DNA of 64,000 bases from Branchiostoma floridae. Taxonomy: Eukaryota > Chordata > Leptocardii > Amphioxiformes > Branchiostomatidae. A model generated the notes under the pieces. That model searched no databases, was not told where the DNA came from, and saw only the letters and a list, made by a program, of their open reading frames with translations. Of the stretch, positions 3,024 through 64,000 are shown one piece after another (position 1 is the first letter of the stretch; each line of letters begins with the position of its first letter). Where the stretch lies: contig NC_049979.1 of the NCBI RefSeq assembly GCF_000003815.2, forward strand, positions 23,954,724-24,018,723, written 5' to 3'. The translations under genes were made by a program, and so were the position numbers.

Positions 3024-3980
3024 ATGGCACAGGACGGGGTCTCGGATGCACCTGCTACCCTAGCCGGGCTCTCATTGGTGGACGCCCCTCCATCCCAGGA
3101 TGACGTATTCACGCAGTATTTACATAGTGGGAACCATTGCTGGTCTAATCGCCCGGGACCCCGTTGTCTAAGCGCTACGTCGTCTTTCGCTTACAACAAG
3201 CAGACCAGGAACAAGATGCTTTTGACCCACCAGGAGATACCCTTCCACCAGCGCCCTCTCCACCTTCTGACTTTGGAGGAAGAGGAGTTTCTCTGGGAAG
3301 ATGAGGAGGACAGAGAGCTGACCCCCAGCGAGGCACTACGACTGGCCATCACGGATTATTGCCACGACTACGTCCGCGCTCTGATTGACAAGTACCCTGC
3401 GAAGGTCCTTGAGGACGGGGGCAACTGTTGTCCTGCTTTAGTCCATGCCGTGTCGCGCGAACAACCGGAGATGGTGGAACTCATTCTACGGCACAGTAAA
3501 AAGGTGATGGGGCTGACAGACTACGTGAACCAGCGCAGCTGTCATCTGGACCAGCAGCGCACTGCCCTGCACAAGGCGGCGGAGTTGGGCAGCCTGCCCT
3601 GCGTCAACGTTCTGCTGCGTTACGGGGCGGATCCCACCTTAACGGACGCCACCGGTGCCACGCCCCTGGATGTTTGTCTGCGAGGCCCGCCGCCGGTAGA
3701 TCCGAGAATACCTGTGCAACTCGACACCAGGTACCTGGACTGTGCTCAAGCGCTTATTCAAGCTTCACCACCGAACAGTTACCAGTCTACGCTCGTCCGG
3801 GTCTTGCCAGAACACGCAGTGTTTTCTCCGTTACGACAGTATCTGAGGGAGCCCCCGAGCCTGGTGGAACATTGCAGACTGTCTATCAGATCTGCCATGG
3901 GACCACGACATCTACCAGAGGGAGCCAAGAATCTCAGTTTACCAAAAATGCTACAGGCATATATTCAGCTGGAAAAATGA
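3024..3980 (+). CDS. ANKRD9: ANKRD9-like ankyrin-repeat protein (probable Cullin-RING substrate adaptor)
   Basis: An intronless 318-residue frame, matching the roughly 317 residues I recall for vertebrate ANKRD9. Residues 1-65 are a variable N-terminus. A family-typical Thr-Pro-Ser-Glu-Ala-Leu segment lies at about 101-106. Two or three ankyrin-type repeats follow; the clearest is Thr-Ala-Leu-His-Lys-Ala-Ala-Glu-Leu-Gly (about 183-192), leading to Leu-Leu-Arg-Tyr-Gly-Ala-Asp. The last 50 residues contain Pro-Pro-Ser-Leu and a Leu-Pro-Glu-Gly..Leu-Ser-Leu-Pro pattern that aligns by eye with the vertebrate C-terminus. Vertebrate ANKRD9 is reported to act with Cullin-RING ubiquitin ligases (as I recall, controlling IMPDH2 levels). 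The first ATG is used, just after an acceptor-like CAG, so a noncoding 5' exon is likely. An ASB-family (ankyrin-SOCS box) member is the main alternative. Confidence 0.75.
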   Translation: MAQDGVSDAPATLAGLSLVDAPPSQDDVFTQYLHSGNHCWSNRPGPRCLSATSSFAYNKQTRNKMLLTHQEIPFHQRPLHLLTLEEEEFLWEDEEDRELTPSEALRLAITDYCHDYVRALIDKYPAKVLEDGGNCCPALVHAVSREQPEMVELILRHSKKVMGLTDYVNQRSCHLDQQRTALHKAAELGSLPCVNVLLRYGADPTLTDATGATPLDVCLRGPPPVDPRIPVQLDTRYLDCAQALIQASPPNSYQSTLVRVLPEHAVFSPLRQYLREPPSLVEHCRLSIRSAMGPRHLPEGAKNLSLPKMLQAYIQLEK

Positions 3981-4491
3981 TGATTCTTTTTATACAAAAT
4001 TTACAAATGGAACCGTACTGAATTGACGTTTTACAAATTTCACCGTATTTCGCCTCTAATTAATATATTGTAGTAATACTAGTCTGATGTTGTACAGGTA
4101 TACTTGTGAACGTTGAATCGTAGCTGTCTATGTTGAAATTCAAATACCGCTCGGAGTCACTCCCATAACACGGTTATCCACTTATGGATGACTTTATTTT
4201 ACGGTATGTCTGCGATTGTAATGAAATTATGTGTTTTGATGTAGAATTGTTGTAAATATCTGTCGAAGCGTGAATGCGAACAGATCACTACTATGATTAA
4301 TATATTCATTATTTATGACACAATTACGGCATATTCATTCTATAGCCCTGTCTGCCATTTTAACGACTCCCTTGACAAATGAAATGTTATGTATATCATA
4401 TGTGTATATATGAAATGCTTCTGGCTGTGAATAGATGGCATATCAATAGATTTCTGGACCTTGTGGCTTTTTTCTGACGCAGAAAAAGGGA

Positions 4492-4497
4492 AATAAA
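4492..4497 (+). terminator. Candidate polyadenylation signal of the ANKRD9-like gene
   Basis: AATAAA about 510 bases after the stop codon; other AATAAA-like sites follow near 4,759. Position is reasonable but use is unproven. Confidence 0.35.
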
Positions 4498-5359
4498 ACA
4501 CGTTGTTCATGTTGTATGGTATCATTATCAAGTTGCCTCGCTCTTTGTGTGACCTATCTAATTGATCGCACGACTGGATCTACATGTATGCTATATCATT
4601 GGCTTTGTTGCCCCCATTTCGGATGAGAATCCCATAATCAGTATGTGGACAGGGGATTGGTATATGTTGTACCTGCGTAAACCGTAATTATAGTGGCATT
4701 TTAAGTTCATGCATAAAACATGTCATCTCTTGGCAGAGGGAAATTGATTTATGTACTAATAAACAGCCGCCAAATGAAAACATTTTTTTTTCGATTCGTA
4801 TATCGAATATACACCGAGGTACTGGCAATGGAAATATGCACGTGGGTGCTCTAAATTATGTTTAGATGTTTATAGGTTAATGCGATAGTAAAACGGGCCA
4901 GGCCTTCTCTGTATCTGCCCAACCCTATTTCTGTAATCTATTTTTTTGGCGTCGACAGAAGTCTGGTATAGTCTTAGTACTGTATGAGGGGAAATGTTCG
5001 TGGTGACTTCAATGCTCGCGGTTTTCGCGGTGACGCGAACTTAGAAGCAGCACGTACTGTCTTCTGTCCGGCAACCCCCTTGTTTTAACCGAGAACTTAA
5101 AAGTAAAGCCATTGCGTACAGGCCAATTTATCCTCGCCGCGGAAATAAAATCCTCTCCAACATTTTCCTTTTAACAGTATTTGTCGTTCAAGACGACACA
5201 TTCGATCCAACAGACACCAGAGACACATTGAGAGAAGACAACAAATCATCCTTGGCGCCACAAAGACCGAAAACCTGCTGGAACATGTACCGTACTGAAA
5301 CGCCTGTCCCCTGGGACCCGATTCAGCTGTTTCTTCCGCCTACTTATTAGGTAGCCTGG
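4498..5359. other. Intergenic, no gene seen
   Basis: AT-rich sequence with no long open frame and no exon-like block on either strand. Confidence 0.5.
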
Positions 5360-9845: not shown

Positions 9846-12800
9846 ATGACTGAAGCGGAACAGGCCCAGCAGGAGACACCCATGGAGGATGAGTCGGAGG
9901 TGGAGACCTTTGCCTTCCAGGCAGAGATCGCCCAGCTCATGTCTCTCATCATTAACACCTTCTACTCTAACAAGGAGATCTTCCTGAGGGAGCTCATCTC
10001 CAACTCTTCCGACGCGCTGGACAAAATCCGCTACGAGAGCCTGACAGATCCCGGCAAGCTGGACTCCGGGAAGGACCTCAGCATTCGCATCATTCCAAAC
10101 AAGGAAGACAACACCTTGACCATCATGGACACTGGTATTGGGATGACCAAGGCTGACCTGGTCAACAACCTGGGAACCATCGCTCGCTCTGGCACCAAGG
10201 CCTTCATGGAGGCTCTGCAGGCCGGCGCTGACATCTCCATGATTGGTCAGTTTGGCGTGGGTTTCTACTCCGCGTACCTCGTGGCCGACAAGGTGGAGGT
10301 CGTCACCAAGCACAACGATGACGAGCAGTACAGGTGGGAGAGCTCAGCGGGAGGATCCTTCACGGTTTGCATGGATGCGGGGGAACCGATTGGCCGTGGC
10401 ACAAAGATCATTCTCCACCTGAAGGAAGACCAGGCGGAGTACATCGAGGAGAAACGCATCAAGGAGGTGGTGAAGAAACATTCTCAGTTCATCGGCTATC
10501 CCATCAACCTCGAGGTGACCAAGGAGCGCAACAAGGAGGTTAGCGATGATGAAGACGACGAGGAAGATGCGGAAGAAGCCGCCAAGAAAGAGGAAGGAGA
10601 GGGGGACCAAGAGGAGAAGCCTAAGATTGAAGACATTGACGAGGAAGAAGAAGAAAGTAAGGCCAAGGATAAGAAAAAGAAGACCATCAAGGAGAAGTAC
10701 AAGGAAGATGAGGAGCTGAACAAGACCAAGCCCATCTGGACCCGTAACCCTGACGACATCAGCCAGGAGGAGTACGGAGAGTTCTACAAGAGCCTGACCA
10801 ATGACTGGGAGGATCATCTCGCTGTCAAGCACTTCTCCGTGGAAGGTCAGCTGGAGTTCCGGGCCCTCCTGTTTGTCCCCCGCCGTGCTCCCTTCGACTT
10901 GTTCGAGAACAAGAAGAAGAAGAACAACATCAAGCTGTATGTGAGAAGAGTCTTCATCATGGACAACTGTGAAGAGCTGATCCCAGAGTATCTGAATTTC
11001 ATGAAGGGTGTGGTGGATTCAGAGGACCTGCCCCTCAACATCTCCCGTGAGATGCTCCAGCAGAGCAAGATCCTGAAGGTCATCCGCAAGAACCTTGTCA
11101 AGAAGTGTCTGGAGCTGTTTGCTGACCTCCACGAAGACAAGGACAACTACAAGAAGTTCTACGAGTCCTTCAGCAAGAACCTGAAGGTGGAGTAAAAGTC
11201 TTCAAAATCTTAAGTTGCTACAAATGCAGTATGAAAGATATACTCAAAACAGTAAATTTAAGGGGAAGCTAACAAACACTTCACTATAAATCACTTATTG
11301 TCAAAACCGTGGGTATAGACATTTTTATTATAAAAGTGGAGTTGCAAATTTCCAAAAAGAATGACACCTTTGCATTCCTTATCCATTTCCTTATTCCAAA
11401 TCCATGATTGCTTTGTGTCTAAGTCTAATTTTGACTTTTAACTACGTGTACTTATACTTCTAAGGACTTGTGTGTGTCTTTGTCATCAGCAATTTGCCCT
11501 GATATCTGTTCTTTACTCCTTTACAGCTTGGCATCCATGAGGATGGGCAGAACAGGAAGAAACTGTCGGACCTTCTGATGTACCACTCCTCTGCTGCTGG
11601 AGAGGACATGACAACACTGAAGGACTACGTCTCTCGCATGAAGGACAATCAGAAGGACATCTACTATATCACTGGTGAGTAGACTCTGGTTTTCTTTAAG
11701 AAGGATGCGACTCTAGATCTGTACTTTAAAAATGCATCCCTTACCCCAGGGAGCTGACAAGATTCCACACTTATATTGTTTATTTTACTGTCTGTTCCCT
11801 GTGTTCATAGGTGAGTCCAAGGCTTCAGTGGAGCACTCTGCTTTTGTGGAGAGAGTTACCAAGCGGGGATTTGAAGTGCTGTACATGGTAGAACCCATTG
11901 ATGAGTATGCAGTCCAACAGCTCAAGGTATGCAAGCAATTTTCTTACTCTAAAATCATCTACTTAAAACTTGCATCTTCATGAAACACAAAGCATTGATA
12001 GGAATTAGTGTAGTTTGTTTTGCATAACCGGTAAACCATCTTTAGGCTTCACACACTGGTTTTGTACGGTAAGGACAAGCTGCATAAGACTGGACTGTAA
12101 GGATTGGTCAAGTCCACTGGGAAAGACTTCTTCTCTTTTTGATAAGTGTGGAGGGTTCTTTTACATGCTCGAGGTGTGGCTCTCTTCTGGCTTTGCATCC
12201 CATCTAATTGGATGTCCCTAACTGAAACTTTGTAGTTGAGTAAAGAAATAGGCGTTAAATGCCTTTCCCAAGGGCACCAGATTGGGGCTTCAGAAGATTT
12301 GAACCCTGAACCTTTAGGCTCTAAGTCAGGTATAGTTGAGTGAGGAAATAGGTGCAAAGTGCCTTTCCCAAGGCACAATATTGGGCCCTGCCAGGGATTT
12401 GAGCCCAAAACATTTAGATTCAGTCCCTATGCTGAAGACCACCTTTCCACCATTTGTTTCCTCTGTCAGGAGTATGATGGGAAGAAGCTGATCTCTGTTA
12501 CAAAGGAGGGTCTGGAGCTGCCTGAGGAGGAGGAGGAGAAGAAGCGACGGGAGGAGCTCAAGGCCAAGTTTGAACCTCTCTGCAAGGTCATGAAGGACAT
12601 CCTGGACAAGAAAGTGGAGAAGGTGAGTCCATGTCACAGTGAAGAAAGAAAAAGCAGTGTTAAGTCTACTTATGGCTTAATTTTATTTGCATAATGTTTA
12701 TGTATACTCTACAATGGCTCACAGGTTTGGACAAATCTACTAGCCCTATTGTCCCGGGCAAGTGACGATTGGGCAAGCAGATGTCCTACGCAACTTGCCC

Positions 12801-14057
12801 GATCGGGCAAGTAAGAATTTTCCATTGGTGAGATTTTGATATACTTTTCAGTCATGATCAAGCATCGGTCAACACATAGAAATAAAGCCAATAATAAAAA
12901 TTCCATTGCTGGAAGTGAAAATACACGTGAAAAGTTGTTTCAGGCAAGTTGATTTTTTATGTACTTGCTCAACCCAAACCCAAACTTGTCTAACCCTGTC
13001 CAACCTTATAGTACAGTCTCAGAGAGTTAAGGGTAGAAGAGTAGATGTAAGACTGACACTGGGTGTTCCCCATGCAGGTTGTAGTGTCCAACCGCCTGGT
13101 CAGCTCCCCCTGCTGTATCGTCACCAGTCAGTACGGCTGGAGCGCCAACATGGAGCGCATCATGAAGGCCCAGGCCCTGCGCGACAACAGCTCCCTCGGC
13201 TACATGGCCGCCAAGAAGCACCTGGAGGTCAACCCAGAGCACCCCATCATCGACTCGCTGCGAGAGAAGGCTGACGCAGACAAGAACGACAAGTCTGTGA
13301 AGGACCTGTGCATGCTGCTGTACGAGACGTCGCTCATGGCGTCTGGCTTCACCCTGGAGGATCCGCAGGTCCATGCAGGCAGGATCTACAGGATGATCAG
13401 ACTGGGATTGGGTAAGTTAAGGATAATACAGGATGATTAAGCTGGGAGTAGGTATGATTAGGTTGGGATTAGGCAAGTACAGGATCAGCATAAGTACAGG
13501 AGCAGCATTTTACATCTGTTTTCATCATTAGCTAAAATGCGGAGAAAATGTACAGAGCATAAGGATATAAAGTTAAAGTCGTTTGCTTGGCCATAGTTAG
13601 ACATTTGGAAACTTAAATTTTGTGTCTTCAAGCTTTTAGGGAAGTTTTCATCAATTGATTATGTAATTGTACTGTAAAAGAGCAAACAGGTTAAAAGTAC
13701 CCTGGAGACCAGACTTTAAGCCAGAGCTGGCAGAGAATTTGTCCGGCAAGTCTTCCCGAGTACCTTAGATAAGCACACTTGGGAAGAGAGTTGCCTGCCT
13801 AGCTATGCTAAAAGTCTGGTTTCCAGGGTAGGTTAAAGGGGGAAAAAAATACATCTGCTTTGTCAGTATTTCTCTTATGGTGGAAACAATCAAAACAATT
13901 TTGCACAGTCCTTAATGCAAGAACTTAACCCATTGTCCATACTGTGTCTTCAGGTATCGATGAAGAGGAGACAGCTGCAGAAGAAGACGTGACAGATGAG
14001 ATGCCTCCTCTGGAGGGGGATGATGATGACACATCGCGGATGGAAGAGGTGGACTAA
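9846..14057 (+). CDS. HSP90: Cytosolic HSP90 molecular chaperone, six coding exons
   Basis: Coding exons: 9,846-11,186; 11,527-11,674; 11,811-11,926; 12,470-12,622; 13,078-13,411; 13,954-14,057. All have GT-AG borders and join in frame to 731 residues (human cytosolic forms are 724-732). The N-terminal GHKL ATPase domain shows the Glu/Asn helix (Leu-Ile-Ser-Asn-Ser-Ser-Asp-Ala), Asp-Thr-Gly-Ile-Gly-Met with Asp at about 95, and Gly-Gln-Phe-Gly-Val-Gly-Phe-Tyr. An acidic/lysine-rich linker spans about 230-285. The middle domain contains Asn-Ile-Ser-Arg-Glu (about 398-402), whose Arg contacts ATP phosphate. The C-terminus is Met-Glu-Glu-Val-Asp, the TPR-cochaperone docking motif of cytosolic HSP90. 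It folds kinases, steroid receptors and other clients in an ATP-driven cycle. The first ATG follows the splice acceptor directly. The alpha/beta split of vertebrates postdates this lineage, so no paralogue letter is given. Confidence 0.97.
12230..12425. repeat. Tandem pair of a tRNA-SINE-like repeat in an HSP90 intron
   Basis: Two adjacent copies of about 95 bases share TAGTTGAGT, AAATAGG and TGCCTTTCCCAAGG, then GATTTGAACCC / GATTTGAGCCC. The last motif, read on the minus strand, resembles a tRNA-type B box (GGTTCAAATC). A SINE-like origin is an inference. Confidence 0.4.
13698..13830. mobile_element. Short TIR element (TACCCTGG ends) in HSP90 intron 5
   Basis: Left TIR TACCCTGGAGACCAGACTTT and right TIR AAAAGTCTGGTTTCCAGGGTA (given here as read) are reverse complements with few mismatches. 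Nine-base flanks GGTTAAAAG and GGTTAAAGG look like a target duplication (8/9). Length 133 bp, no coding capacity. Related termini occur at 28,385, 46,455 and 52,572. Confidence 0.65.
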
Positions 14058-14845: not shown

Positions 14846-14948
14846 GATTCCCAATGATATCACAATGGAATGAACTCTCGCGAGATCTCCACTCGCGTGA
14901 GTTTATGACATGTGATATAACTCCCCCTCTATTCACAAGTGAATCATG
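14846..14948 (+). repeat. Split direct repeat A1 (left end of element)
   Basis: 103 bases starting GATTCCCAATGATATCACAA and ending AAGTGAATCATG, repeated at 19,084-19,186. It contains nested dyads: ATATCACA...TGTGATAT outer arms, AACTCtCGCG...CGCGtGAGTT inner arms, and TTCACAAGTGAA at the end. These could be recombinase or transcription-control sites (inference). Confidence 0.85.
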
Positions 14949-16089
14949 AGCCGCACGAACAGGACGTTGCCAAGCAGAGCTCCTGTAGCGCGGTACCAGC
15001 CATGTGCAAGCCGGTGACATCTTTTACTTCTGGGAACGTATCTTGCCGGCAGCAAAGGACTGAGTAGTTTCCTTTGGCGTTAGTGTCACTAACCTAGAAG
15101 GTACGCAGTATTGCCTTGCCGCCTTATGGCGTGTTCTGGAATTTTCGTTTGGCGGTCTGTTTCCCGCGCTTTGGCGGGACAGTGTTCTCAGTGCAGAGAC
15201 ATTTTGCTGTCTGAATTTCGTTTTATTATTCTGTGAATTTGTTTGCTCACCTTTCCTAAGGCGTGCAGCTTGTGTTTTAGAGCATATTCGAGTTTTCAAA
15301 TGTTCCTTCTGATACTCGTGTCATTTATGAGTGGAATTTGCATCTGTATGTGGAGCGCACGTGTTCGGGTGCGCAGGTGAGATTGATTCAACTTAGCGTG
15401 GTTAACTTGGCTTCGGATGCATTGTGATTTCCTTGTTTGTTTGTTTTTTCGCATGAGTTAGGTATTCAGACAAGGCTGTATCACCACCAGGACTGCCGTA
15501 ATCCTTGTTTTCTCGCGCAAGGAGCCTAATGGAGCAGAACAACACTGAACTGATCACCGAGGGCCTGGAGGAGCACCTGACATTCCTCCCCTGACGACAG
15601 TAGTGGTTAAACTTATTACTGACACCGCTGTGGGTGAGTTAAGCCATTTTTTGGAAACTTTGGGCAGTCGTCAAAGTGGTGGTCAGTGTTTTTCTGTGTG
15701 TGCCGAAGCGCCATGTTTCGGGTAGAGTTGCCTGATTGGGCTGCTCTCGTTTTAGCAGTGTTGCTTGTCTGTTTTACCGTACAATTTTGCCATGGTTTTC
15801 TGTGCTAGGCCAGCATTTCTGCAATCTGTGGAGCAGTCAACAGCCCGGAAAGTGGTTGGACCAGGCTCAAAGACTTCATTACTCCGGCAGTAGTCAACAA
15901 TTTGCAGCGGTGATTCCAAGTTGACTGTGATATCCTTTCTGAAAGTGTTTGTTTTTGCACTTCAGGTTGTCGGACAGCCTGTACGCTAGTAAGAGATCTT
16001 TTAACCGTCGTGAACTCGTGATGTTTCTGTTTTCTCAGTAATTTTTGCCGCGATGACGTAACATGTGATGTGCCCTTCTTCCAGTTTAC

Positions 16090-16468
16090 CAGCTCCTGTC
16101 ATGCTGATCGGCGGGGCGCAGTTCGGGGCGGGTCGCAGGTCTGCACTAAACCGGCGTTCTCTCCACCACAGCCCCTGTCGGGCTGATCGGCGGGGAGCAG
16201 TTCGGCACTAACCCGGCGTTCTTTCCTCCCCAGCTCCTGTCAGGCTGACTAGCGGGGAGCAGTTCGGCACTAACCCGGCGTTCTCTCCTCCCCAGCTCCT
16301 GTCAGGCGGACTGGCGGGGCGCAGTTCGTTACTAACCCGGCGTTCTTTCCTCCCCAGCTCCTGTCAGGCTGATCAGCGGGACGTAGTTTCGGAGTGGGTC
16401 GCAGTTTTGCACTAACCCGGTATTCTCTCCTCCCCAGCTCCTGTCAGGCTGATCAGCGGGGCGCAGTG
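16090..16468 (+). repeat. Tandem array, 62-bp unit, six copies, splice-acceptor-like
   Basis: Units begin with CAGCTCCTGTCAGGCTGA at about 16,090, 16,169, 16,231, 16,293, 16,355 and 16,435. Spacings are therefore 79, 62, 62, 62 and 80. The two longer units carry a 17-18 base insert (GGGTCGCAG...). Each unit ends in a pyrimidine run plus CAG (TTCTCTCCTCCCCAG), which looks like an acceptor site. It lies inside the split-repeat element. Confidence 0.85.
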
Positions 16469-16571
16469 GTCTGATTTCTTAGTACCGAGGACGTAACTTT
16501 TGTGGGGAAACTTTAGGTTTTGACTCTGTATGACTGAGGATCGTCGATCGATTTAATGTTTTAATTGGTTA

Positions 16572-17850
16572 GAATTCGCTGTCGGACAACGGCACCGTCG
16601 GATGACGTAATAAAGTAATTGTTGTATATTGTATTCGCTGTCGGACAGCAGCACCGTCGGACGGTGTGGTACAGTAATTTGTGTTTATTGTATTTGCTGT
16701 CGGACAGCGGCACCGTCGAACGGTTTGGTACAGCAATTGTTGTATATTGTATTGGCTGTCGGACAGCGGCACCGTCGGACGGTGTGGTATAGTAATTTGT
16801 GTATATTGTATTTGCTGTTGGACAGCGGCACCGTCGGACGGTTTGGTACAGTAATTGTTGCATATTGTATTTGCTGTCGGACAGCGGGCACCGTTGGACG
16901 GTGTGGTACAGTACATACATCCTGTATGTTGTATTTGCTGTTGGACAGCGGCACCGTCGGACGGTTTGGTACAGTAATTGTTGCATATTGTATTTGCTGT
17001 CGGACAGCGGGCACCGTTGGACGGTGTGGTACAGTACATACATCGTGTATGTTGTATTTGCTGTTGGACAGCGGCACCGTCGGACGGTTTGGTACAATAA
17101 TTGTTGCATATTGTATTTGCTGTCAGACAGCGGGCACCGTTGAACGGTGTGGTACAGTACTTTGTTGTATATTGCATTTGCTGTCGGACAGCGTGGCCGC
17201 CGGACGGTGTGGTATAGTATATGACTGTATGTTGTATTTCCTGTTGGACAGCGGCACCGTTGGACGGTGTGGTACAGTACATGGTTGTATATTGTATTCG
17301 CTGTTGGACAGCAGCACTGTAGGACGGTGTGGTACAGTACATACATGGTTGTATGTCGTATTCGCTGTTGGACAGCGGACTCCGTCGGACGGTGTAGTAC
17401 AGTACATGATTGTATGTTGTATTCGCTGTTGGACAGCGGCACCGCCGGACGGTGTGGCACGGTACATACATGGTTGTATGTTGTATACGCCGTTGGACAG
17501 CGGCACCGTTCGGCGGTGTAGTACAAGTACATGGTTGTATGTTGTATTCGCTGTTGGACGGTGTGGTACAGTACTTTGTTGTATCTGGTATTTGCGGTTG
17601 GACAGCGGCACCGTTGGAGGGAGTGGTGCAGTATATGACTGTATGTTGTATTTGCTGTTGGACAGCGGCACCGTCGGACGGTGGGGTGCAGTACATGGTT
17701 GTATATTGTACTCGCTGTTGAACAACGGCACCGGTGGACGGTGTGGTGAGATTGTTGGACAATCGTGTAGAGAATTCGTTGTTGGACAGCGGGGTGCGTC
17801 AGACGGTATAGTGGATTTTCGCTGTAAGACAACGGGCGCCGGTGGACGGT
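16572..17850. repeat. Paired-hairpin satellite array, about 60-bp unit, about 22 copies
   Basis: Each unit has two adjacent short dyads with a shared core: GCTGT-YGG-ACAGC and CACCGT-YGG-ACGGTG, followed by an AT-rich spacer (TGGTACAGTAATTGTTGTATATTGTATT type). Arms are conserved while the three-base loop varies (CGG, TGG, CAG, TGA). From about 16,817 to 17,175 the array is a 120-base dimer repeated three times. Units decay towards the right edge. Long open frames on both strands (up to 459 codons) exist because the unit length is close to a multiple of three and lacks stops; I do not consider them genes. Confidence 0.9.
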
Positions 17851-18865
17851 AATCGTAACTTTGTTTGATTTGAGTCGGTGTTTCATTTGATATGACGACA
17901 GGTTGTTGGACAACCTCAGATTTTGTTTGGTTTGTTGCATGGTTGGTGAACAAATCCATGGTAGGTAACAAACCGTACGGTAGTACAGTGAAGACCTACC
18001 TTGTTGGACAGGTCAGAAGTAAAGGTCAAAGGAATGGAGGACACAATGGGAACAATGGAACTTCGTTTGTCACAATTAGATTGTGACCTTGGACGACATG
18101 CAATTTTCGATAAGGTCCGCAGCGTCTGCACGGTAATGTTGGATGGTGATTTTACCGTTGACTGAACCGGTGTTTGCGTTTCTTGTTATGCAAGTTTGGA
18201 ATAAAGACAAAGATCATGACGAGTTTCTCGTGTCACATTCCTTCCTACCATTGGATTTTCTGTGTTCCTGTTTATTGGCTACCTTTAGCTGGCCTAGTTC
18301 TCACTCGTGGACCGTGTTCAGCTCCCTTAAGCTGTTGCCACCCATACTGGCTTCGGCCTGGTGGTCCGGGAAGCGAGTGGGGCCTGTCCAGACTGAAATA
18401 CATAGAACTGTGCGTAAAGGTCGACAGTTACAGGTTAGATACTGAGCAAGCATTGTGGTGATAGCTTTCTCTGCAGCTGGAATATTGTTCTTGTATACGC
18501 AGAGAAATCAATGTTTGATTTCCAACACGACGCAGGATGAGTTGAACTACTGTAAACCTGGGAGAGGTTGGTCTCAGGTAATCTCTAAGGGTTCTCTATC
18601 TAATCGGACTGGTCGTCGACCATTCCACTGAGTTCGGATTGGACAGGTCCCACTCGAGCCGGACCTTAGGCGCCCAAGGAACTTAGCTGAGAACCAGGGA
18701 TCAATCTGCATTCCTGAGGAACACCTAAAGACTGATGACTGTGACTGTGATAGTATTACACCCACCCTGTTGATAACAACAAGCATGCGCAGCAGACCAT
18801 AGGGGATGCTGCTGTGTTGTCAAGGTGGCTTAATGCATACGTAGAGGGTTTTGTACGGAAAGGCA

Positions 18866-18985
18866 CAGAGGTGAGGGAGTAAATATAAGGGATTGGGGGA
18901 ATGAAGACAATAAGGATTGGGAAAAGGGAATGGAGAAGAATAAGGATTGGGAGAGGATTAAATGAAGGGAAATGTAGGAACTTAA
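18866..18985 (+). repeat. Purine-rich tract inside the split-repeat element
   Basis: About 120 bases of nearly pure A/G with repeated ATAAGGATTGGG and GGGAATGGAGAAG phrases, between the satellite array and the B1|A2 junction. It could serve as a priming-like or structural tract; that is speculation. Confidence 0.5.
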
Positions 18986-19024
18986 ATTAGGGGAATAATG
19001 GCACTCGGGAGAAGCGGGTGCCGA

Positions 19025-19186
19025 GGTCTTCTCACCCCAGTCCTTAACTCTCCACTGAGGCAACGTGAGTGGGAATATATTATGATTCCCAATGATATCA
19101 CAATGGAATGAACTCTCGCGAGATCTCCACTCGCGTGAGTTTATGACATGTGATATAACTCCCCCTCTATTCACAAGTGAATCATG
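19025..19186 (+). repeat. Internal B1|A2 junction of the split direct repeats
   Basis: B1 (19,025-19,083; starts GGTCTTCTCACCCCAGTCC, ends AATATATTAT) runs without a gap into A2 (19,084-19,186). This would be the sequence of the closed circular intermediate's end-to-end joint in an Ngaro-type element. Confidence 0.85.
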
Positions 19187-19359
19187 TGCCGGACGGGAGG
19201 GACACAGCCTAGCAAGAGTAGACTAGTCTAGCTACAGTCCACGGTCAGAGGCAATGTAGGTTTCTAGTGTAGCCGTTTTTCACCAGAGGGATATCTCCGA
19301 TCTGTGTGGATTATCCAAAGCTCCGAAGTTATATGCAACTACTACCCTACATGCGCTAG

Positions 19360-19512
19360 ATGTTTGTGTACTGCAGGGACCAGAGTACACGAACAACCAA
19401 AGCTAGTAGTCAACTGGTTGTCCCAAAGCCTAAGCGAGAGACCTTCAGAAGATCAATAGCCTACCGTGGGCCCAATGTCTGGAACAGCCTACCGCCAGAC
19501 ACAAAGAGTGTA
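19360..19512 (+). pseudogene. Reverse-transcriptase C-terminal tail fragment
   Basis: About 50 codons lying between A2 and B2 read ...Leu-Val-Val-Pro-Lys-Pro-Lys-Arg-Glu...Phe-Arg-Arg-Ser...Tyr-Arg-Gly-Pro...Trp-Asn-Ser-Leu-Pro. This pattern is common at the extreme C-terminus of non-LTR (LINE-type) reverse transcriptases in marine invertebrates. No catalytic palm motif is present nearby, so it is a relic. AATAAA-type signals follow at about 19,544 and 19,613. Confidence 0.5.
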
Positions 19513-19841
19513 TGGCTCTTTCTCATGTGGTACAGCAGTCGGAATAAAACCGAGTGTCAGTCATTTGGTACTTTGTGTAATAATAGTTGCCATATCATGT
19601 ACAATTGTCGGGCAATAAAGTTCTGTTCAAGTGTAGGTGTCTTTTCTGTGTTATATCTGAACAACAGAGCGCAACACATGATATCAAGTTTCGGAGCAAT
19701 TCTTCACCTTTTCTGCTGAAGAGGATATTAGTAGATGGGGGGAGCACGGGAAGAAGTGCAGTCAAATTTTTAGCCCCCCCACCCACCCACCCCCTAAGTA
19801 TTTTACGGGTAAGCATGGAATCTCGGATTCCACGATGCCTC

Positions 19842-19900
19842 GGTCTTCTCACCCCAGTCCTTAACTCTCCACTGAGGCAACGTGAGTGGGAATATATTAT
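19842..19900 (+). repeat. Split direct repeat B2 (right end of element)
   Basis: 59 bases identical to B1, ending AATATATTAT followed by unrelated flank CATTTATCTC. It defines the right boundary of the split-repeat element. Confidence 0.85.
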
Positions 19901-22900
19901 CATTTATCTCGAGGACACAGTTTTATACTTGATGATTTGGGAGATGCAGAGCTTTATGGTTGTGGCCTTGGAATATTCCAATTTAGGATGTGTTCATTTA
20001 TAAGAAGGACTCCTAGGGGAAATAGGTGGCAAGACAGGAGGACCACTTCAGCATGTACATATTTGGTAAGGATAGGCATTGGGTGGGGTGTTGTGAAACT
20101 GATGCCTTCTTTTGTTTCCAGTGGCTATGTTACATGAAAGGTGCATTAGGTCCATCAATATTTTGAAAAGTGACAAGTATTCACAGTGTCCATCTCAACT
20201 TTTGTAAGTACTTTTTTTTTATAGAATTCAAGATGGCAGGCAGTTTAACAATCAATACAGCACTCTTGGCAAAGAATCCATATCTGAATGGCATATGATA
20301 AAATTATAGAGCAATAACTTGAATAAGTGAAAAAACATTCATCTGCAACCAATGGAATTAGTAGAAGGAAATTTGATTTTTTTCCCCTACATAAGAAAAT
20401 GACATTAGATGATACACAATGCAGCAAAATACATGTACCATTATATAACTGCCAGGTACAATTTTGCTGAGAGTATGCTGTTCACATTTAATTGGATTAC
20501 TTGCAGAAGGTATTGATCTCAGTGTAAAGCTTCCAAGAGCACTGCCAAGAGCCTTATTGTGTTATCTGGCAGATGGTGGAAGAGACCTTTGCTTTCGTTA
20601 CAAAATTAGATCTTGATGTCAAGGAATATTGTTCATGCCAAGATGGTGACCTTATTCTCACTTGACATAAGCATGGGTAGATATAATTTACCAGGGGTAG
20701 GATGTCAACATTTTCCCCTTGTCATTCATTACAAGATACTTGCTAGGATTTTTACCCCCATGAAAATGTTAGTCCATTTCTCAATTTGCTTGTCCAGATG
20801 TGTGTACAAGTTTGTTCAAATCTGCCCATGTCCAAGGATGGCCCCATACAGTAGCATTATATGGTGTAACTGGAGACTTGCATTCACGGAGGTATTATTT
20901 CATATTGTATCTTGAAAATGCAATGCCCTCTTCTTTATGACATTATTGTGATGATGACATATTTTTTTATTTCCCCAAGCTGGACTTTTTTCTGAAAACA
21001 ACTAAATTTTGATGGACTCTGCAGCTTAATATTAAGCTAATACTCTACCCACCACCACAATGTATGCAAAGCATTATGGCAAAATGCTCAACATTTGCAT
21101 TTACTTTATGCATACTTAAAGTTGAAATAACAAGGTCAAAAATAACAAGTTACACACTTGTGGATAGATTTATCATAGAATACTTTATTCACAGGTGTAG
21201 TGATTTTTTGCAGCAGATTATACAAACGACTCTCAGGTACATACAGGCAGCTCTACCTAGCCATGTATTTTTTTTTTTATCTATGAAGTATTATGTACAC
21301 TGTACATAAATACACGGGCCCTGGAGGGGTTAGTGCTTTCCATCTTTTGGATTATAAAGGGCTTGGACCAGGCCGATAAAATTTTTTGCAGCTTCTGTAC
21401 AATATAAGGTGCCCCTCCCTACATCAATGTCTTATTTATAGTGTGCAAAACCTTCATTGGTTTTCCCTACACACACTAAACTCCAGTCACAAGAATGCCT
21501 GAAGTATTTCTTCTTTAGAAACCCAGATGCTAGCAAAGCAGTCAAAATGCCTGTGGTGACTTCAGTTCTTAGTTCTATCCGGTAAAAGTGTGACATTTGA
21601 CAGCAATATTCCTCATGAAAGGAGGATATCTTAGGAGAAAGCTTTCTTTTTCTAGTTCCAACATTACTTTCCAAGTTTCCTGCAATGTGGCTTTACATCT
21701 TTCTATTGTTAGCACATCAAATCATTCTCAAACAAGTGTCTACTAGGCAAGAGTGCTCGTTATAAAATACTGTACTTAATAAAAGACTGTACACTGCTCA
21801 GAGCATGTGGAATGGGTAGTTCACTTGTAAAAGTAAAGGTCATAACGATAGCTCTGTCTTTTCTACTATCAAGAGCGTTAAGACTCGTAAAACTATGGAG
21901 AGGACTTTGCTTTTTCAGACCATTATACACGCTGGAGACAGCTATACCTTACTTTTTAACACACCCTTGGAAAAGAAAACTACAGCATTTAACAATATTG
22001 TAGGAGGAATCAGAACAGAAAGCTGAAAAATTAAACATCAACTGTTGATGACTGGCATTTAAAACATTCTTCTTATCCCTTCCTTTAACAAGGTTAAATA
22101 AAAAGAGAGACTGTTGGTGTGCAATGTTAACATTTATCTGCCTGTTCCATCATTTGCATATGATAAATTAAGACATTTCCTTAATTTAAAGTGGTTAATA
22201 TTAGGTTTTCAAATGATAAATAGGGCTGTACTGTTATTGATAAATTACAAGTGTCAGCTTTAAGCATCATGAAGATTGAAATGACTCTCCCAAGACTTGA
22301 ACATTACAATCACTTACAATATTCCATTCTTCACAATTCTTTTCATGGTATAAAACTTACAATCACAGTTCTACCGACAAATTACCTCCACAATTCCATT
22401 CGGTGATGGCGATAGAGTTAGCCTGATATTTTGACATGTCTTTGGTCAGACGCACTGATCTAATGTACTGAAACATAGCCTTAAATTATCCATTGTCCTT
22501 AATTTGTTTAAAAAGACTTGATTGCTTGTATGATTACTTATTGAAACTGAGACCACTTTTCTATCAGTTGGTGACACCTGCAGAGACATTTCGTTACTTA
22601 GTAAGGTCATCTCCAACATTACTTCATTACTTTTGATTTGTCAAACAGATGCAATTAGGTCCTTACTTAGTGCACTGTTGCTACAAGATCAACTTCAAGT
22701 TGGGTCAGCACTATTCACTTGTAATTTCTAATCACAACAAAAAGGCCTCTTTAAATGTTTTCTTGATACGTGTACTTACTGCGGTGAGCACATGGTACTT
22801 TATGGCTTTCTTTCCCATTTTTCAAATGAAAGGGAAACAAAGTTAGGTTACTGCTTGTACAGAGTGTTGAATCTGAGGACCAGAACTGTGAAACAACTTC

Positions 22901-24628: not shown

Positions 24629-27600
24629 CTGTAGGAGAAACACACAAGGAAACATCAACACAATATAAGTATGGTCTTCTAAGGCCATTAAAAATAAATT
24701 TTATGTATGACATCCACTTCAGATCTATGGCAAGAGTGCCCAAAATGCCTATATCTCAAAATAGAGACCATAAACATTGTATCTGTGATTAGGGCTTGTG
24801 TTCTGGTATCCTGAGTTACACAACCGACCCTTGCAAAAACCTGCCAACCCTGTATTTCATGTTTCAGATTAAAGCTTTGAACAGCTGATGTACTTCTTTG
24901 TTCAGTTTATTGATTTGTTTGTACAAGATCTGTACAATATGATGTTGGAAATACCGTGTCCTGATGCCTTTCAGTTTCACACTGATAAACTGTATTTGTT
25001 GGATCACTTTGGCCAAAGTAAAAAAAAAAAGTAAAAAGAAAAGAGAATCCATACTAATTGTCCCTTCAGGACTGTCATCAAGAACAGAACATTAACTTTC
25101 CCACACGTCCTTATACATGTCAAAGGGCTACAGATAAATACACTGTGTGGTGAAACTACGTGTCAGTGCTGAAACAAATGTAAACTGTACGTGTTGATGT
25201 TATGGCACGAACAGCCTACAAGAGGGGATATCTCATACCAGATTCCCATTTCTATCATGACATACCAACATATAGAGGGATCAACGCACACATCCAAGGC
25301 CAAAGTGTGTTGATGGAATAAAACATGAGGGCTTTCCTGCCTTCACTTTCAGGCAGAGGTAATGTATGGGGGCAGGCAGTCCACATCAATACCAATGTGT
25401 TTGTGCTTGCTGTTGGAAGACATAATGGCTGCATGACACAAGCAGGAAATTTGACTTCTTACAACTGCAACCTGTCTTCTTTATGACGAAGCTGATACCC
25501 TCTTTTCTGTCTAAAACATTTTCCTGCATCTTTACAGCATATAACCTTCAGCTTGTTAAGATAGCTGTTTTGCACCAAATTTGCAATGGTTTTCAGTTTA
25601 GGTGGTGTTAGGGGGTTAAAGAAAATCTAATGTTAAGAATGTAAATGAACATCACATACATGTAATAGGTAGAAAACTGTCATACATTGCAGACACCCAC
25701 CACTTTGCCTGGCCTGGCCCATGTGCAGACGAACCCCTCTTGACATCCCGTTACTATGCAGTCTTCCCTAAACACTAGGGCTGTAAGTCTCTCCTGTGCT
25801 ATCTTCTTACACACCAAAGGTTCTAATAGAGGCACCTCGTCCAGTTTAGGACAGCAGGGGGTGCCAAGCCTGGCATAGTCTTCCAACATTTTGGAGTGAG
25901 CATTGTGACCTTTGCTTATCGAGTTCAACTTGTCGCTGCTCTTACTAGACAGACTGTAATTCCTCTTGTGTTCGTGCTTCTCGTGTTTGTCTCTCCTGTC
26001 CCCGAGAGTCAATGTCGCGAACTTGCTGGTGATTCCGGAGGCTATGGAGCCGTCTGTCAAGCTCTTCTCCTTGGCGTTAGGGGCGGACCCTGTGGAGTGG
26101 ACTGCATTGTGAGGGAGGCTGTTGCACCTGGGCATGGTGGCACTGCCCGAGGGCAGCGGGAGAGAGTTTGTTAGGTTCGTATGAGTCCGTGCTCTTGTCA
26201 AAGGCTGCTGCGGGTACAAGACATCCTCCGTCAAATCCCATATGCAGAGCTGGGTGTCCTGGCCGACCGACCCAAACCGGTACGTCGTCACATTGCTGGT
26301 ATCCGCATTGCAGATGGACGCCCGGGAGTGACTACTGTTCGCACGCTCCCTCATAGAGCCGGGGTTGGACCCGGGATTAGATCCCGGGTTGTTTCTACTT
26401 GTTTGAGAGTCGTCGCCTTCGTCGTCGCTCCCACTGAAGTCCCCCGCCTCGCCCTCCACCACCATGGTGGTGAAGGGGTCGAACGCGACCACACTTACCC
26501 AGGATTTGTGTCCATGCCCCCGGGCCACTACTCTTTTCTCTGCAAAAGACCAGACAGTCACTAGGTCATCCTCACCGCCTACTGCCACAAGCTTACCATC
26601 AGGGCTCCAACATATACACAGCAGTCCTCCAAAATAACTCTTCATCATCCCCTTTAACTCCATTTGGTCAAAATCTATAACCCTAAGGAAACCGTCCTGG
26701 CTGACGCAGGCGATGTGCTTATTGTCCGGGGAGAACGAGAACTCGTTCAGCGCGCCGTCGCCGATGACCCATCTGAAGATGGGGTTCCGCGTGGACTTGG
26801 ACTTGCACGTCCAGACGGAGAAACCCTCCCCCTGCTTGAGCAGCTGGTAGTGGGGTGCAGTGGTGCCACAGGGGTGCTCCTCATTGTACATGTACATCTG
26901 ACCGCTGGCGTGGGACACCAGGAACATGTTTTCTGTCCCAGGAACCCACTTTATACACGTTACCCTGCTCTTGTCTATTAGTCTCTGTAGAACACAAGGA
27001 CAAAAATCATAATAATATGTGTTAGTGCAAGGCAAGAACTTTTGATTAACATACAACACTAACAGTGTGAATATCATTAATTATCTACTGAGAGCAATCT
27101 TAACTAAAATGTCCTTCTCTTCAATACTACATTTGTTGGTATCATGTACTTTGTTGGGACTCCCATGTTAGTACTTAGTCAGGCTTCCATAGTCACCTGC
27201 CTGGCCATGTTGTGGGAAGGAGTATATTCATAACTATATCGTGTTTCATCGAATGTTCAATAGTTTACACAAGTCTACATGTACTCAGTGCAAGACCTTT
27301 TCAACACAACAGTACTTGCGAGCACACACATGTCAAAATAAGTGCTTACTTCTTCATTGAAAAGCTTGCTAGTTTCCTTCTTGATAGGGTCGATGAGTTG
27401 CACTTGTCCCGCTGAAAATCCTACTAACAAGCTGACGCTGTCGCTGGTGCAGGTCAGCTGGTTAAAATCATGGCACGTCGGTAACGTTCCCTTGTAGACA
27501 CGTTTGTCTACTGGTTTGGTCAAATCAGCTGCCTGTATATAACAAACAACAAAGAATGGTCACTTTACAAGATAAATCTTCATTCATTCAAGGCCGTACT

Positions 27601-54856: not shown

Positions 54857-56246
54857 ATGTTTACAGAGAGAGACCTCACAGCCATGGGCCTTGACTGGAA
54901 CATGTCTTGGAACTCGTCCGGTGTTGACTGTCCTGACAAGTCGTACCAACTCAGGTTCTATGTGTACACCGTGGTTGAGGTGAGTTTACTATACGTAGTA
55001 CGCAACTTACCGTTGCAATGGGCATTCAAAATCCATCGTCTCTCCAAACACACACGTTATACTCTACATTTCACATGACTGTTTATACAACAACAAATAT
55101 GGCACAGGAGAAACCCAGTATCAACTGGTAAGTAACATGCAGTAATATTAATTCCAGGTCAACAATGTCAATAATTATTGGGGCTGTTGTAGGCCTGAGG
55201 TTGGCGACATAGTTATATCCAACTAATTGACCTAAATCGTTATCATTTTGTTTGTTTCATATTGTTTGTGTAACATTTACAAACTCTATATATCTGTTCA
55301 GGTGATGATAGCGTTCCTGTCCATATTCGGGAACACCCTGGTGTGCGTGGCTGTCCTGCGGGGGCGGCGACTCCGCACGCCGAGCAACCTGTTGGTCGTG
55401 TCCCTGGCTGTCGCCGACATCTGCGTTGGGCTTTTCGCCATCCCCTTCGCCATCGCTACAAGCGTCGGTCTGCCTCTTCACCCCTACGCTTGCTGTTTCA
55501 CCCTATCCTTCATCATTATCACTACGCAAACTTCCATATTCGGCATGCTGGCCATTGCCGTGGACAGATACATGGCGGTCGGGCTGCACCTGTCCTACGC
55601 CCGCCTAGCCACCACCCGCCGCACCTGCCTCACCATCGCCGCCACCTGGGCGGCTGCAACCGTCATCGGGCTCGTCCCCATGGTGTGGCATCGTTCCCAG
55701 TCCGCCTTCATCTGCTGCTACTTCGAAGAAGTCATCAACATGTCTTACATGGTGTATTTCAACTTCTTCGGGACTGTGCTTCCACCGCTGGTTGTGGTGG
55801 CTGCTATATACACGCGGGTGTTTCTCATTGCGCGGTCGCAACTGAAGAAGATATCCAAACTTAACATCGGTCTCAGCATTAGGGATCGTAGGATTGCCAA
55901 AATCAAGAGAGAACTTCGAGTGGCGGTCTCCCTGGCCATGGTTGTGGGAGCATTCGCCGCCTCCTGGTTGCCTCTTCACATCATCAACTGTATCAACTTC
56001 TTCACGACCACGAGAGTTCCAAACCAAGTAGTTCTCAGCGCCATAGTGTTGTCCCATGCTAACTCGGCTGCCAACCCAGTGATCTACACGTGGAGGTTAG
56101 AAGAATTCCGTAACGCCTTCAAAGCCATTCTGACATCTTGGTGTCAGCAAACGTTTCGTCAAGACGAGGAACGTCATCTGAAACCTGTTCGCAGCTACGC
56201 TCAGTTGAACATGATAGAGATGCAAAAATCTCGCTCATTTCCATAA
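54857..56246 (+). CDS. Adenosine-receptor-like class A GPCR, two coding exons
   Basis: Exons 54,857-54,979 and 55,302-56,246 join in phase 0 (Val-Val-Glu|Val-Met-Ile within TM1) to 355 residues. The N-terminus carries possible N-glycosylation sites (Asn-Met-Ser, Asn-Ser-Ser). Landmarks: Asn52 (1.50), Asp80 (2.50), Asp129-Arg-Tyr131, Trp157 (4.50), Asn299-Pro-x-x-Tyr303. Residues that bind adenosine in human A2A are kept: Phe182-Glu183 in loop 2, Trp263, His267 and Asn270 in TM6, Ser292-His293 in TM7. The stretch Met-Val-Tyr-Phe-Asn-Phe-Phe and Leu-Pro-Leu-His-Ile-Ile-Asn-Cys are adenosine-receptor signatures. The usual Cys of the TM6 CWxP motif is Ser262 here. The ligand is probably adenosine at the cell surface, signalling through G proteins; subtype cannot be set by eye. 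Confidence 0.88.
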
Positions 56247-57654: not shown

Positions 57655-58062
57655 AGCATATTTGAATCTTTACTCTTTGAATTTATGACATCAATCTGCA
57701 CAACAGATTCAAAATGCTTGTAAGAAAGCAACTATGATAAAGGAATGTTATGTGTAACATGCAAGCATTATGGCACATAGTAACAGTACTGTGCATGAAC
57801 ATGAAGTACTACAATGCAATTTGTTTGCACAATATAATGCAGTACAGTCCATTGTAAATCAGCATTTGAATCTTTACTTTTTGAATTCATGACATAAATC
57901 TGAACAGATTCAAAATGCTTGTAAGAAAGCAACTATGATAAAGGAATGTTATGTGTAACATGCAAGCATTGTGGCACATAGTAACATTAATGTGCATGAA
58001 CATGAAGTACTACAATGTGATTTGTTTGTACAATATAATGCAGTAGAGTCCATTGTAAATCA
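57655..58062. repeat. Tandem duplication of about 205 bp at the Kelch gene 3' end
   Basis: Two head-to-tail copies (57,655-57,860 and 57,861-58,062) share long runs such as ATTCAAAATGCTTGTAAGAA and CATGAACATGAAGTACTACA with few differences. The right end of copy 2 includes the stop codon of the minus-strand Kelch gene, so the unit is its last codon plus proximal 3' UTR. Confidence 0.9.
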
Positions 58063-63193: not shown

Positions 63194-64000
63194 TTAGTCC
63201 ACCTCGTTGATTGTAGGTCCCTGTGCCCCGGCTCCGCCCTGCTGTTGTTCCCCTGCAGCGCTGTGCAGTTTGGTCATGATGGGAGCACACACCTTCTCCA
63301 GTTCCTTCTGCTGTTCCTCGAACTCCTCCTTCTCTGCCAGCGTGTTCATGTCCAGCCACTTCATGACCTCCTCGCACTTGTTCAGCACAGTGTCCTTGTC
63401 TGTCTGGGATAGCTTACTGGACACGTCCGGGTTGTTGACGGTGGAACGGAGGCTGAACAGGTAACTCTCCAGGCCGTTCCGTGCGTCGGCCCGCTGTCGA
63501 GCCTGCGCGTCCTGCTCTTTGTGCTTCTCTGCGTCAGCCACCATCCGCTCAATGTCTTCCTTAGACAGCCGACCCTTTTCGTTGGTGATGGTGATTTTGT
63601 TGCTGCGCCCCGTACTCTTCTCGACGGCGGAAACCTGTAAGATTCCGTTGGCGTCGATGTCGAAGGAGACTTCTATCTGTGGCACGCCGCGAGGCGCTGG
63701 CGGGAAACCGCTCAGTTCGAACAAACCCAGTCTGTTGTTGTCTTTGGTCATGGCGCGCTCGCCCTCGTACACCTGGATGGTGACGCCTGGCTGGTTGTCG
63801 CTGTACGTGGTGAAGGTCTGGCCAGTTTTGTAGGGGATGCGCGTGTTCCGTTCGACTAGCTTGGTCATGACGCCGCCTGCCGTCTCGATGCCCAACGAGA
63901 GAGGCGCGACGTCTACGAGAAGGACGTCCTTTATCCCGTCGTCCTCCACGCCAGACAGGATAGCTGCCTGCACGGCTGCTCCGTACGCCACGGCCTCGTC
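63194..64000 (-). CDS. Cytosolic HSP70, C-terminal part (runs off the right edge)
   Basis: About 268 codons without an intron; the frame continues past position 64,000, so the ATPase domain is missing only because of the window. The visible part begins [12 protein letters not shown], then the linker [10 protein letters not shown], the substrate-binding beta-sandwich (Val-Glu-Arg-Asn-Thr, Phe-Glu-Leu-Ser-Gly, Phe-Asp-Ile-Asp-Ala-Asn-Gly-Ile-Leu) and the helical lid. The tail is Gly/Gln-rich and ends Asn-Glu-Val-Asp rather than the usual Glu-Glu-Val-Asp. HSP70 binds unfolded peptides in an ATP-controlled cycle with J-proteins and hands clients to HSP90. Inducible versus constitutive type cannot be judged without the promoter. 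Confidence 0.95.

What the first reader, a model, noticed from the sequence alone, without database searches (positions are those of the whole stretch)
14846..19900. Non-autonomous element with exact A1...B1A2...B2 split direct repeats
Two blocks (103 and 59 bases) recur with the permuted order A...BA...B. B1 abuts A2 with no gap, and both pairs read as identical. Known Ngaro/PAT elements have this plan, but they encode reverse transcriptase and a tyrosine recombinase. Here the interior is satellite arrays instead, so the element would have to be mobilised in trans. The identical ends suggest recent movement.
Basis: partly seen in the sequence, partly recalled or inferred. Interest (0 to 1): 0.85.

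Follow-up and report, generated by a model that had tools for sequence, protein, structure and literature searches.

The report
Non-coding parasite of an ALOG-recombinase retrotransposon
A 5-kb gene-free mobile element, present in dozens of closely similar copies in an animal genome (probably amphioxus), has the terminal layout of tyrosine-recombinase retrotransposons, and a protein-coding relative elsewhere in the genome shares its junction site and its repeat array.

Summary
A1 14846-14948 = A2 19084-19186 (103 bp), B1 19025-19083 = B2 19842-19900 (59 bp), B1 abutting A2. Genome-wide, 68 A starts and 68 B ends fall into 42 loci; 26 read A-B-A-B. Within a copy, A1 and A2 share variants that differ between copies, as if the ends are re-copied each cycle. 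One copy sits in a high-copy repeat; 12 of 12 fetched empty repeats show no duplication or loss at the junction. NTT follows the right end in 19 of 31 ends (2.4 expected), the DIRS-order signature.
A coding relative exists: a 13.5-kb element on contig C8 with the identical 23-bp B|A junction, its own A1...B1A2...B2, zinc knuckle, RT, RNase H and an ALOG-domain tyrosine recombinase. It carries an array with the same palindromic core and an 80-bp piece 97.5% identical. So the 'satellites' are at least partly shared cis-sequence. Mobilisation in trans is inferred. The C8 copy has a gap, RT and RNase H in different frames, and ends only about 80% alike outside the core, so it may be a cousin of the true helper.

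The parts
14846..19900 (+). whole non-autonomous element, 5,055 bp
   Evidence: ends common to fetched copies; no similarity between flanks of different copies, 18 copies compared; empty site of another copy
14846..14948 (+). A1, 103 bp identical to A2 (match runs to 108 bp in 17 of 18 copies)
14857..14918 (+). 62-bp imperfect palindrome inside A1
   Evidence: single-strand DNA fold z -5.4, 0 of 200 shuffles as good; not significant in the coding relative, z -1.0, 28 of 200
16127..16437 (+). first tandem array, 62-bp unit, 4 to 5 copies
   Evidence: TRF 16127-16380, the repeat finder to 16437
16574..17807 (+). second tandem array, 59/60-bp unit with CTGTYGGACAG and ACCGTYGGACGGT palindromes; core shared with the coding relative's 5' array
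18314..18393 (+). 80-bp piece 97.5% identical to sequence just upstream of the coding relative's RT frame
19025..19083 (+). B1, 59 bp identical to B2
19069..19091 (+). B|A junction core GTGGGAATATATTATGATTCCCA: 7-bp inverted arms TGGGAAT/ATTCCCA around 8 bp; identical in the coding relative; proposed recombination site
19084..19186 (+). A2, identical to A1
19337..19503 (+). piece 88-91% alike to five other genomic places; probable captured non-LTR retrotransposon fragment (name from a recalled motif)
   Evidence: Pfam on the 19360-19719 frame gave no credible family
19842..19900 (+). B2, right end
19902..19904 (+). ATT of the target; an NTT stands here after 19 of 31 right ends

Best explanation
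The element is a non-autonomous member of the DIRS order (split-direct-repeat type), mobilised in trans by a gag/RT/RNase H/ALOG-recombinase element of the kind seen on contig C8. Proposed cycle: an RNA is made and packaged by the helper's Gag; RT copies it; the missing ends are completed on the internal B1A2 copy, which keeps A1=A2 and B1=B2 and closes a circle with a B|A junction; the recombinase recombines the core GTGGGAATATATTAT|GATTCCCA with a genomic NTT, without target duplication. Shown: the plan, the family, paired variants of the ends, insertion without duplication and the NTT target, and a coding relative with the same core and a kindred array. Inferred: RNA intermediate, circle, packaging, and which element is the actual helper.
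For: A-B-A-B in 26 of 42 loci. A1/A2 mismatches within copies: 7 in 19 copies against a permuted mean of 23.2 and minimum 11; without L028, 2 against 18.0 and minimum 8. 7 of 18 complete copies carry the same variant in both A blocks. Closest copies differ by 0.09-0.16% in three segments. NTT after the right end 19 of 31, binomial p 5e-14. Empty sites 12 of 12 fetched. Coding relative: core identical, A1=A2 over 107 bp, B1=B2 over 60 bp, ALOG 1.9e-22 and Phage_integrase 3.5e-5, RVT_1 1.2e-3, RT_RNaseH 5.3e-5, zinc knuckle 2.1e-4. Shared array core, 93.8% over 32 bp at best, and shared 80-bp piece. Searching gag, RT, RH and YR of the relative in the 20 fetched copies gave one match, 24 residues at E 0.84, so the proteins must come from elsewhere. 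NTT and absence of TSD are published for DIRS1-like elements (PMC3266345, passages).
Against: The relative's A and B blocks are only about 80% like the family's. It is one assembled copy with 5,936 N in its middle. Its RT and RNase H lie in two overlapping frames (409 and 340 aa), whereas most related loci have one frame of about 700-780 aa over the RT match: programmed frameshift, assembly error or damage, so this copy itself may not be active. RT, RNase H, zinc knuckle and integrase scores are below Pfam's cut-offs; only ALOG is above. No transcript, circle or cDNA was seen. The A palindrome is not significant in the relative. Confidence was lowered from 0.88 to 0.86 on rechecking, for the split RT/RNase H frames.
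Confidence: 0.86

Rival explanations
1. Two tandem units, A1...B1 and A2...B2, each a recombinase-mobile DNA cassette; the composite moves as a DNA circle with no RNA step, as a Crypton would.
For: The plan is formally two A...B units head to tail; a lone A2...B2 unit exists at L039 and an A...B element without B1A2 at L040.
Against: A DNA-only route does not readily explain paired A1/A2 variants. The coding relative with the same plan encodes RT and RNase H. The lone units can arise by A1 x A2 recombination or internal deletion.
Confidence: 0.08
2. Helitron or other no-TSD DNA element with fortuitous direct repeats.
For: No target-site duplication.
Against: Ends are GATTCCC...ATATTAT, not TC...CTRR (recalled motif); no A|T target preference: -1 A in 12 of 33, +1 T in 11 of 31. 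The direct-repeat plan and NTT are unexplained.
Confidence: 0.02
3. Segmental duplication or satellite spread rather than transposition.
For: Internal tandem arrays.
Against: 42 dispersed loci; sharp common ends and dissimilar flanks in the 18 copies compared; empty target copies for one.
Confidence: 0.01

Closest known systems
ALOG-domain DIRS1-class retroposons (Iyer and Aravind 2012, PMC3537659; abstract and passages)
   Same: Reported from Branchiostoma floridae, cnidarians, molluscs and Ectocarpus; RT-RH, ALOG domain joined to a tyrosine recombinase; Ectocarpus copy with terminal direct repeats. The C8 element fits.
   Different: The window element encodes none of these proteins. The paper infers metazoan copies to be recently inactivated; the C8 copy, with RT and RNase H in two frames, may agree with that, but the closest family copies are only about 0.1% apart, so some machinery worked recently.
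Ngaro and PAT elements with A1-B1A2-B2 split direct repeats (PMC4157794, PMC9210276, PMC8547959; passages)
   Same: Same repeat order, identical A pair and B pair; solo A-B units reported in Cafeteria.
   Different: Those described there encode RT/RH and YR; this one is non-coding, 5 kb, with arrays.
SIRE, the short relative of VIPER in Trypanosoma cruzi (PMC6681497, PMC12278014; passages)
   Same: Short non-coding relative of a YR retrotransposon; SIRE spans A2-B2, like L039.
   Different: SIRE lacks A1...B1; whether it is mobile or a remnant is left open in PMC6681497. This family keeps the full four-block plan.
LARD/TRIM non-autonomous LTR elements (search listing only; otherwise recalled)
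   Same: Long conserved non-coding interior, ends re-copied, proteins supplied in trans.
   Different: LTR ends and integrase with TSD there; recombinase and split direct repeats here.
Ngaro-like element beside the VCBP2/5 genes of amphioxus (PMC2632668; passages)
   Same: Same probable host; split direct repeats noted.
   Different: Coding; its repeats could not be compared here.

Membership tests
DIRS order, split-direct-repeat type (as a non-autonomous member) | A1 ... B1A2 ... B2 order with identical pairs and B1 abutting A2 | tested here: met
   26 of 42 loci
DIRS order, split-direct-repeat type (as a non-autonomous member) | insertion without target-site duplication | tested here: met
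   abutting flank identity 0-1 base in the 17 copies with both flanks readable; 12 of 12 empty repeats for one copy
DIRS order, split-direct-repeat type (as a non-autonomous member) | NTT trinucleotide at element start and target | tested here: met
   A begins (G)ATT; right flank NTT in 19 of 31; rule from PMC3266345 passages
Ngaro or PAT, autonomous | encodes gag, RT/RNase H and tyrosine recombinase | tested here: not met
   no credible match of the relative's proteins in 20 fetched copies; so not filed as an autonomous member
DIRS order, split-direct-repeat type (as a non-autonomous member) | coding relative with the same plan and junction in the genome | tested here: met
   C8:13656027-13669504
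ALOG DIRS1-class (for the C8 relative) | ALOG domain fused to tyrosine recombinase | tested here: met
   PF04852 1.9e-22 (above cut-off), PF00589 3.5e-5 (24.1 of 27.1 bits); PDB 8p5q 4.6e-12
PAT rather than Ngaro (for the C8 relative) | methyltransferase-like domain | tested here: inconclusive
   no methyltransferase match in the RNase H frame in Pfam, NCBIfam or PDB
DIRS order, split-direct-repeat type (as a non-autonomous member) | RNA intermediate and circle | not testable with these tools
   needs transcript and circle data
Helitron | TC...CTRR ends, A|T target | tested here: not met
   ends and flank counts; motif recalled
LTR retrotransposon | 4-6 bp target-site duplication (recalled) | tested here: not met

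The most novel reading that the evidence does not exclude
The palindromic 59-70-bp array is a conserved cis-acting signal (for packaging, RNA export or recombinase/ALOG binding) of this ALOG-type retrotransposon lineage. A gene-free parasite has kept only this array, an 80-bp piece and the A/B blocks, and amplifies to dozens of copies on a helper that is nearly single-copy. That would make the minimal cis sequence set of a trans-mobilised DIRS-order element readable from one genome, and give a natural DNA target for an ALOG domain, the domain that plants turned into developmental regulators.
Probability: 0.5. Interest if true: 0.78.

Novelty: new variant of a known kind. Interest (0 to 1): 0.65.

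Why it matters
Non-autonomous partners are well known for LINEs, LTR elements and DNA transposons but hardly for recombinase retrotransposons: seven phrases found no paper in the held library, and SIRE's mobility is left open in PMC6681497. Here family, coding relative, shared site, kindred array and empty sites lie in one genome. Comparing parasite with relative suggests which sequences the machinery needs in cis, and the exact B|A core gives a defined substrate to test what an ALOG-recombinase binds. The close similarity of copies argues that machinery of this class worked recently in a chordate, where metazoan ALOG copies had been inferred inactive.

Tried and rejected
Rejected: chance or ordinary dispersed repeats (controls; order); Helitron, LTR and segmental duplication. 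Ten of the 51 recombinase matches were cut out as 3.2-3.5-kb loci and had no A/B similarity; the relative was found only through the junction core (whose reversed control had 1 match). Of the B-only places, L076 (C158:490621) and L077 (C8:2036329) hold pieces of the element and no listed frame longer than 133 and 119 aa; C158:398156 was not examined. The 80-bp piece shows no special RNA fold (z -0.2 and 0.05) while two array units fold better than shuffles (z -3.4). The A palindrome is strong in the window but not in the relative, so I do not rely on it. Hairpins before B1 and B2 and at the junction were not significant as folds (z -1.5, -1.0, -1.2). L032, between tRNA-Gly-like repeats, gave an ambiguous empty site, paralogues carrying extra bases near the junction. 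In one search all 40 scored rows belonged to L022's flanks, so the other four joined flanks were not assessed. Rfam: nothing at gathering score in the window. The gag frame used was wrong and was redone, without a match; one A1/A2 comparison (C13b) was shifted by a base, and the pair agrees by eye. A paper search for an ALOG target motif found nothing. NTT was first noticed on 17 ends (9 of 17 by eye) and then seen in 10 of 14 further ends (by eye). Left out of the 31 ends: L025 (N), L034 and L037 (no right end), L048 (B end altered). Papers listed but not opened include PMC5633606, PMC9004415 and PMC9341512; PMC12477816 (passages) curates autonomous and nonautonomous families in Ectocarpus, 15 of them Ngaro, and I could not see whether any Ngaro family there is nonautonomous.
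Full report
WHAT IS THERE. The two repeat pairs are exact and in the stated order. The window lies at C1:23954724-24018723 of a 513,431,437-base assembly of 431 contigs. The host is probably Branchiostoma floridae: the assembly size is recalled, and PMC7269912 (passages) gives 19 chromosomes for it; this is an inference.

FAMILY. Searches found left and right ends genome-wide (40 of 79 and 40 of 668 candidates scored, so lower bounds). Pattern searches listed 68 A starts and 68 B ends with no control hit. Grouped by contig and strand within 16 kb they make 42 loci: 26 A-B-A-B, 1 A-B-A-B-B, 1 A-B-A, 2 B-A-B, 1 B-A, 3 A-B, 1 A-A-B, 4 A, 3 B. Two of the four A-only loci were examined and run into the left region with 98.2-99.9% identity for about 1.3 kb; what follows there, and the other two, were not examined. 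Twenty copies were fetched whole; 18 have both pairs, L034 lacks its right end and L037 lacks part of its right side. The A1-to-A2 distance varies, 3,352-4,946 in 16 of the 18, 7,070 and 7,449 in the other two.

ENDS ARE RE-COPIED. In 15 of 18 complete copies A1 and A2 are identical over 103 bp; B1 and B2 are identical in 16 of 18, one of the other two differing only by an N. In 7 of 18 both A blocks carry the same non-reference variant (bases 11, 42, 59 or 91), while single-sided variants are private (L027, L029) or look like a lost end (L028). Total within-copy mismatches are 7 in 19 copies; permuting partners gives a mean of 23.2 and never fewer than 11 in 20,000 shuffles. A diverged subfamily carries its own paired changes in A and B (two A pairs identical). 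This is the LTR-like signature of replication through one template. Outside the arrays the closest copies differ by 0.09-0.16% and the most distant of those compared by about 3% (only copies covering over 90% of a segment were paired, 17, 17 and 18 of 20). L034 and L037 are lower over some parts (93-96% to the window), and a subfamily lies at about 77-93%, so the family is not uniformly young.

TARGET. No abutting duplication of more than one base was seen in the 17 copies with both flanks readable. After B2, T stands at position 3 in 23 of 31 and at position 4 in 25 of 31 ends; both in 19 of 31 against 2.4 expected. The left flank (33 ends) has no position below p 0.01; there the element's own (G)ATT stands. 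PMC3266345 (passages) reports for DIRS1-like elements an NTT terminal trinucleotide, a 3-bp circular junction, recombination with an identical genomic sequence and no TSD. Copy L022 sits in a high-copy repeat: all 40 scored hits of 1,585 candidates cross its joined flanks. Twelve of these were fetched; all 12 read CCCA|AATTTCC at the site, the occupied copy CCCT|element|AATTTCC. Nothing is duplicated or lost at the junction; one base (A to T) differs at the left edge, the base that also precedes A in the B|A junction. L022's left flank lacks 11 bases that lie more than 20 bases from the junction in the empty copies.

CODING RELATIVE. The core pattern GTGGGAATATATTATNATTCCCA had 30 exact matches, 29 in the family and one at C8:13656332. 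That locus holds an element on the minus strand from A1 (C8:13669504) to B2 (C8:13656027): 13,478 bases, of which 5,936 are N. A1 and A2 are identical over 107 bp, the B pair over 60 bp; the right flank reads TTTTC. In order it has a tandem array, a gag-like frame ending in a zinc knuckle, the gap, an RT frame (409 aa), an RNase H frame (340 aa) and a 422-aa recombinase frame with an ALOG domain. The R...HxxR...H...Y residues are visible (motif recalled). RT and RNase H lie in different, overlapping frames, while most related loci show one frame of about 700-780 aa across the RT match; this copy may therefore be damaged, misassembled or use a frameshift. It is the only assembled copy: next best 38% (recombinase, 63 of 63 candidates scored) and 58% (RT, 102 of 222 scored). 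Two A starts like its own lie on C11, with 70-76% similar sequence behind them.

SHARED CIS SEQUENCE. Around the core the relative's A and B blocks are about 80% like the family's. Its array has a period of about 70 bp (TRF, 3.8 copies); one unit begins CGCTGTCGGACAGTGGGCACCGTCGGACGGTGTC. The family unit has the same palindromic core with a different remainder; best short match 93.8% over 32 bp, E 9e-9, longest about 73% over 102 bp, E 2e-10. On the + strand GTYGGAC occurs 30 times in 1.3 kb of the window array, 4 times in the rest of the element and 4 times in the other 59 kb. A unit nearer the relative's 5' end scored 38.3 bits against at most 31.9 in 300 shuffles. The 80-bp piece at 18314-18393 is 97.5% identical to sequence just before the relative's RT frame; kindred pieces lie at C9:1739533, close to an RT fragment, and at C213. 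Order in both: A1, array, 80-bp piece, B1A2, B2. The left third of the family element and the 62-bp array have no counterpart in what could be read of the relative, which has a large gap.

SOLO UNITS. L039 is a lone A...B with the A2-B2 body; L040 joins the first 247 bases of the left part to the right part, lacking B1A2. PMC8547959 (passages) reports isolated AB repeats, and SIRE corresponds to A2-B2.

MECHANISM. Best reading: RNA-mediated, trans-mobilised, ends restored on B1A2, circle, recombinase insertion at NTT. The RNA and circle steps are inferred from the known family, the coding relative and the paired variants. The C8 element shows what kind of helper to expect; it may be a cousin of the true one.

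NOVELTY. Plan, integration rule and helper class are known. A gene-free, recently spread element with the full split-direct-repeat plan beside a coding relative was not found in the held library under the phrases tried (broader lists, of which some papers were seen only as listings). Subscription papers and Repbase were not searched. I rate it a new variant of a known kind.

Noticed in passing
window 9846-14056: HSP90-like gene, its last codons reading MEEVD (by eye; recalled motif); the element starts about 0.8 kb downstream.
   Followed up: no
window 3024-3980, 25680-27077, 55248-56246, 58060-59760, 63194-63991: Long frames that read as ankyrin-repeat, WD40, GPCR, BTB-kelch and HSP70 C-terminal proteins (names by eye, not searched).
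   Followed up: no
window 19337-19503: Piece inside A2-B2, 88-91% alike to five other places; reads like the C-terminus of a non-LTR RT (RGPNVWNSLP, recalled), so probably captured.
   Followed up: partly
L032 flanks (C17:15264102): Copy inserted among tandem repeats that read as tRNA-Gly (tRNA by eye).
   Followed up: partly
C2:28399096-28405118 and C7:24510868-24521683: The A1 end of two copies lies about 6 and 11 kb from the rest of the left part, suggesting nested insertions.
   Followed up: no
C8:425827: A third B end about 1 kb beyond B2 of one copy.
   Followed up: no
C8:1298552-1302240: A-A-B arrangement, perhaps a rearranged older copy.
   Followed up: no
window 57660-58065: 201-bp tandem duplication, 93% matches, next to the kelch-like frame.
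   Followed up: no
genome-wide: 16 further loci match the ALOG-recombinase at 36-39% identity over 300 or more residues, 14 of them without a stop inside; their ends were not examined.
   Followed up: partly
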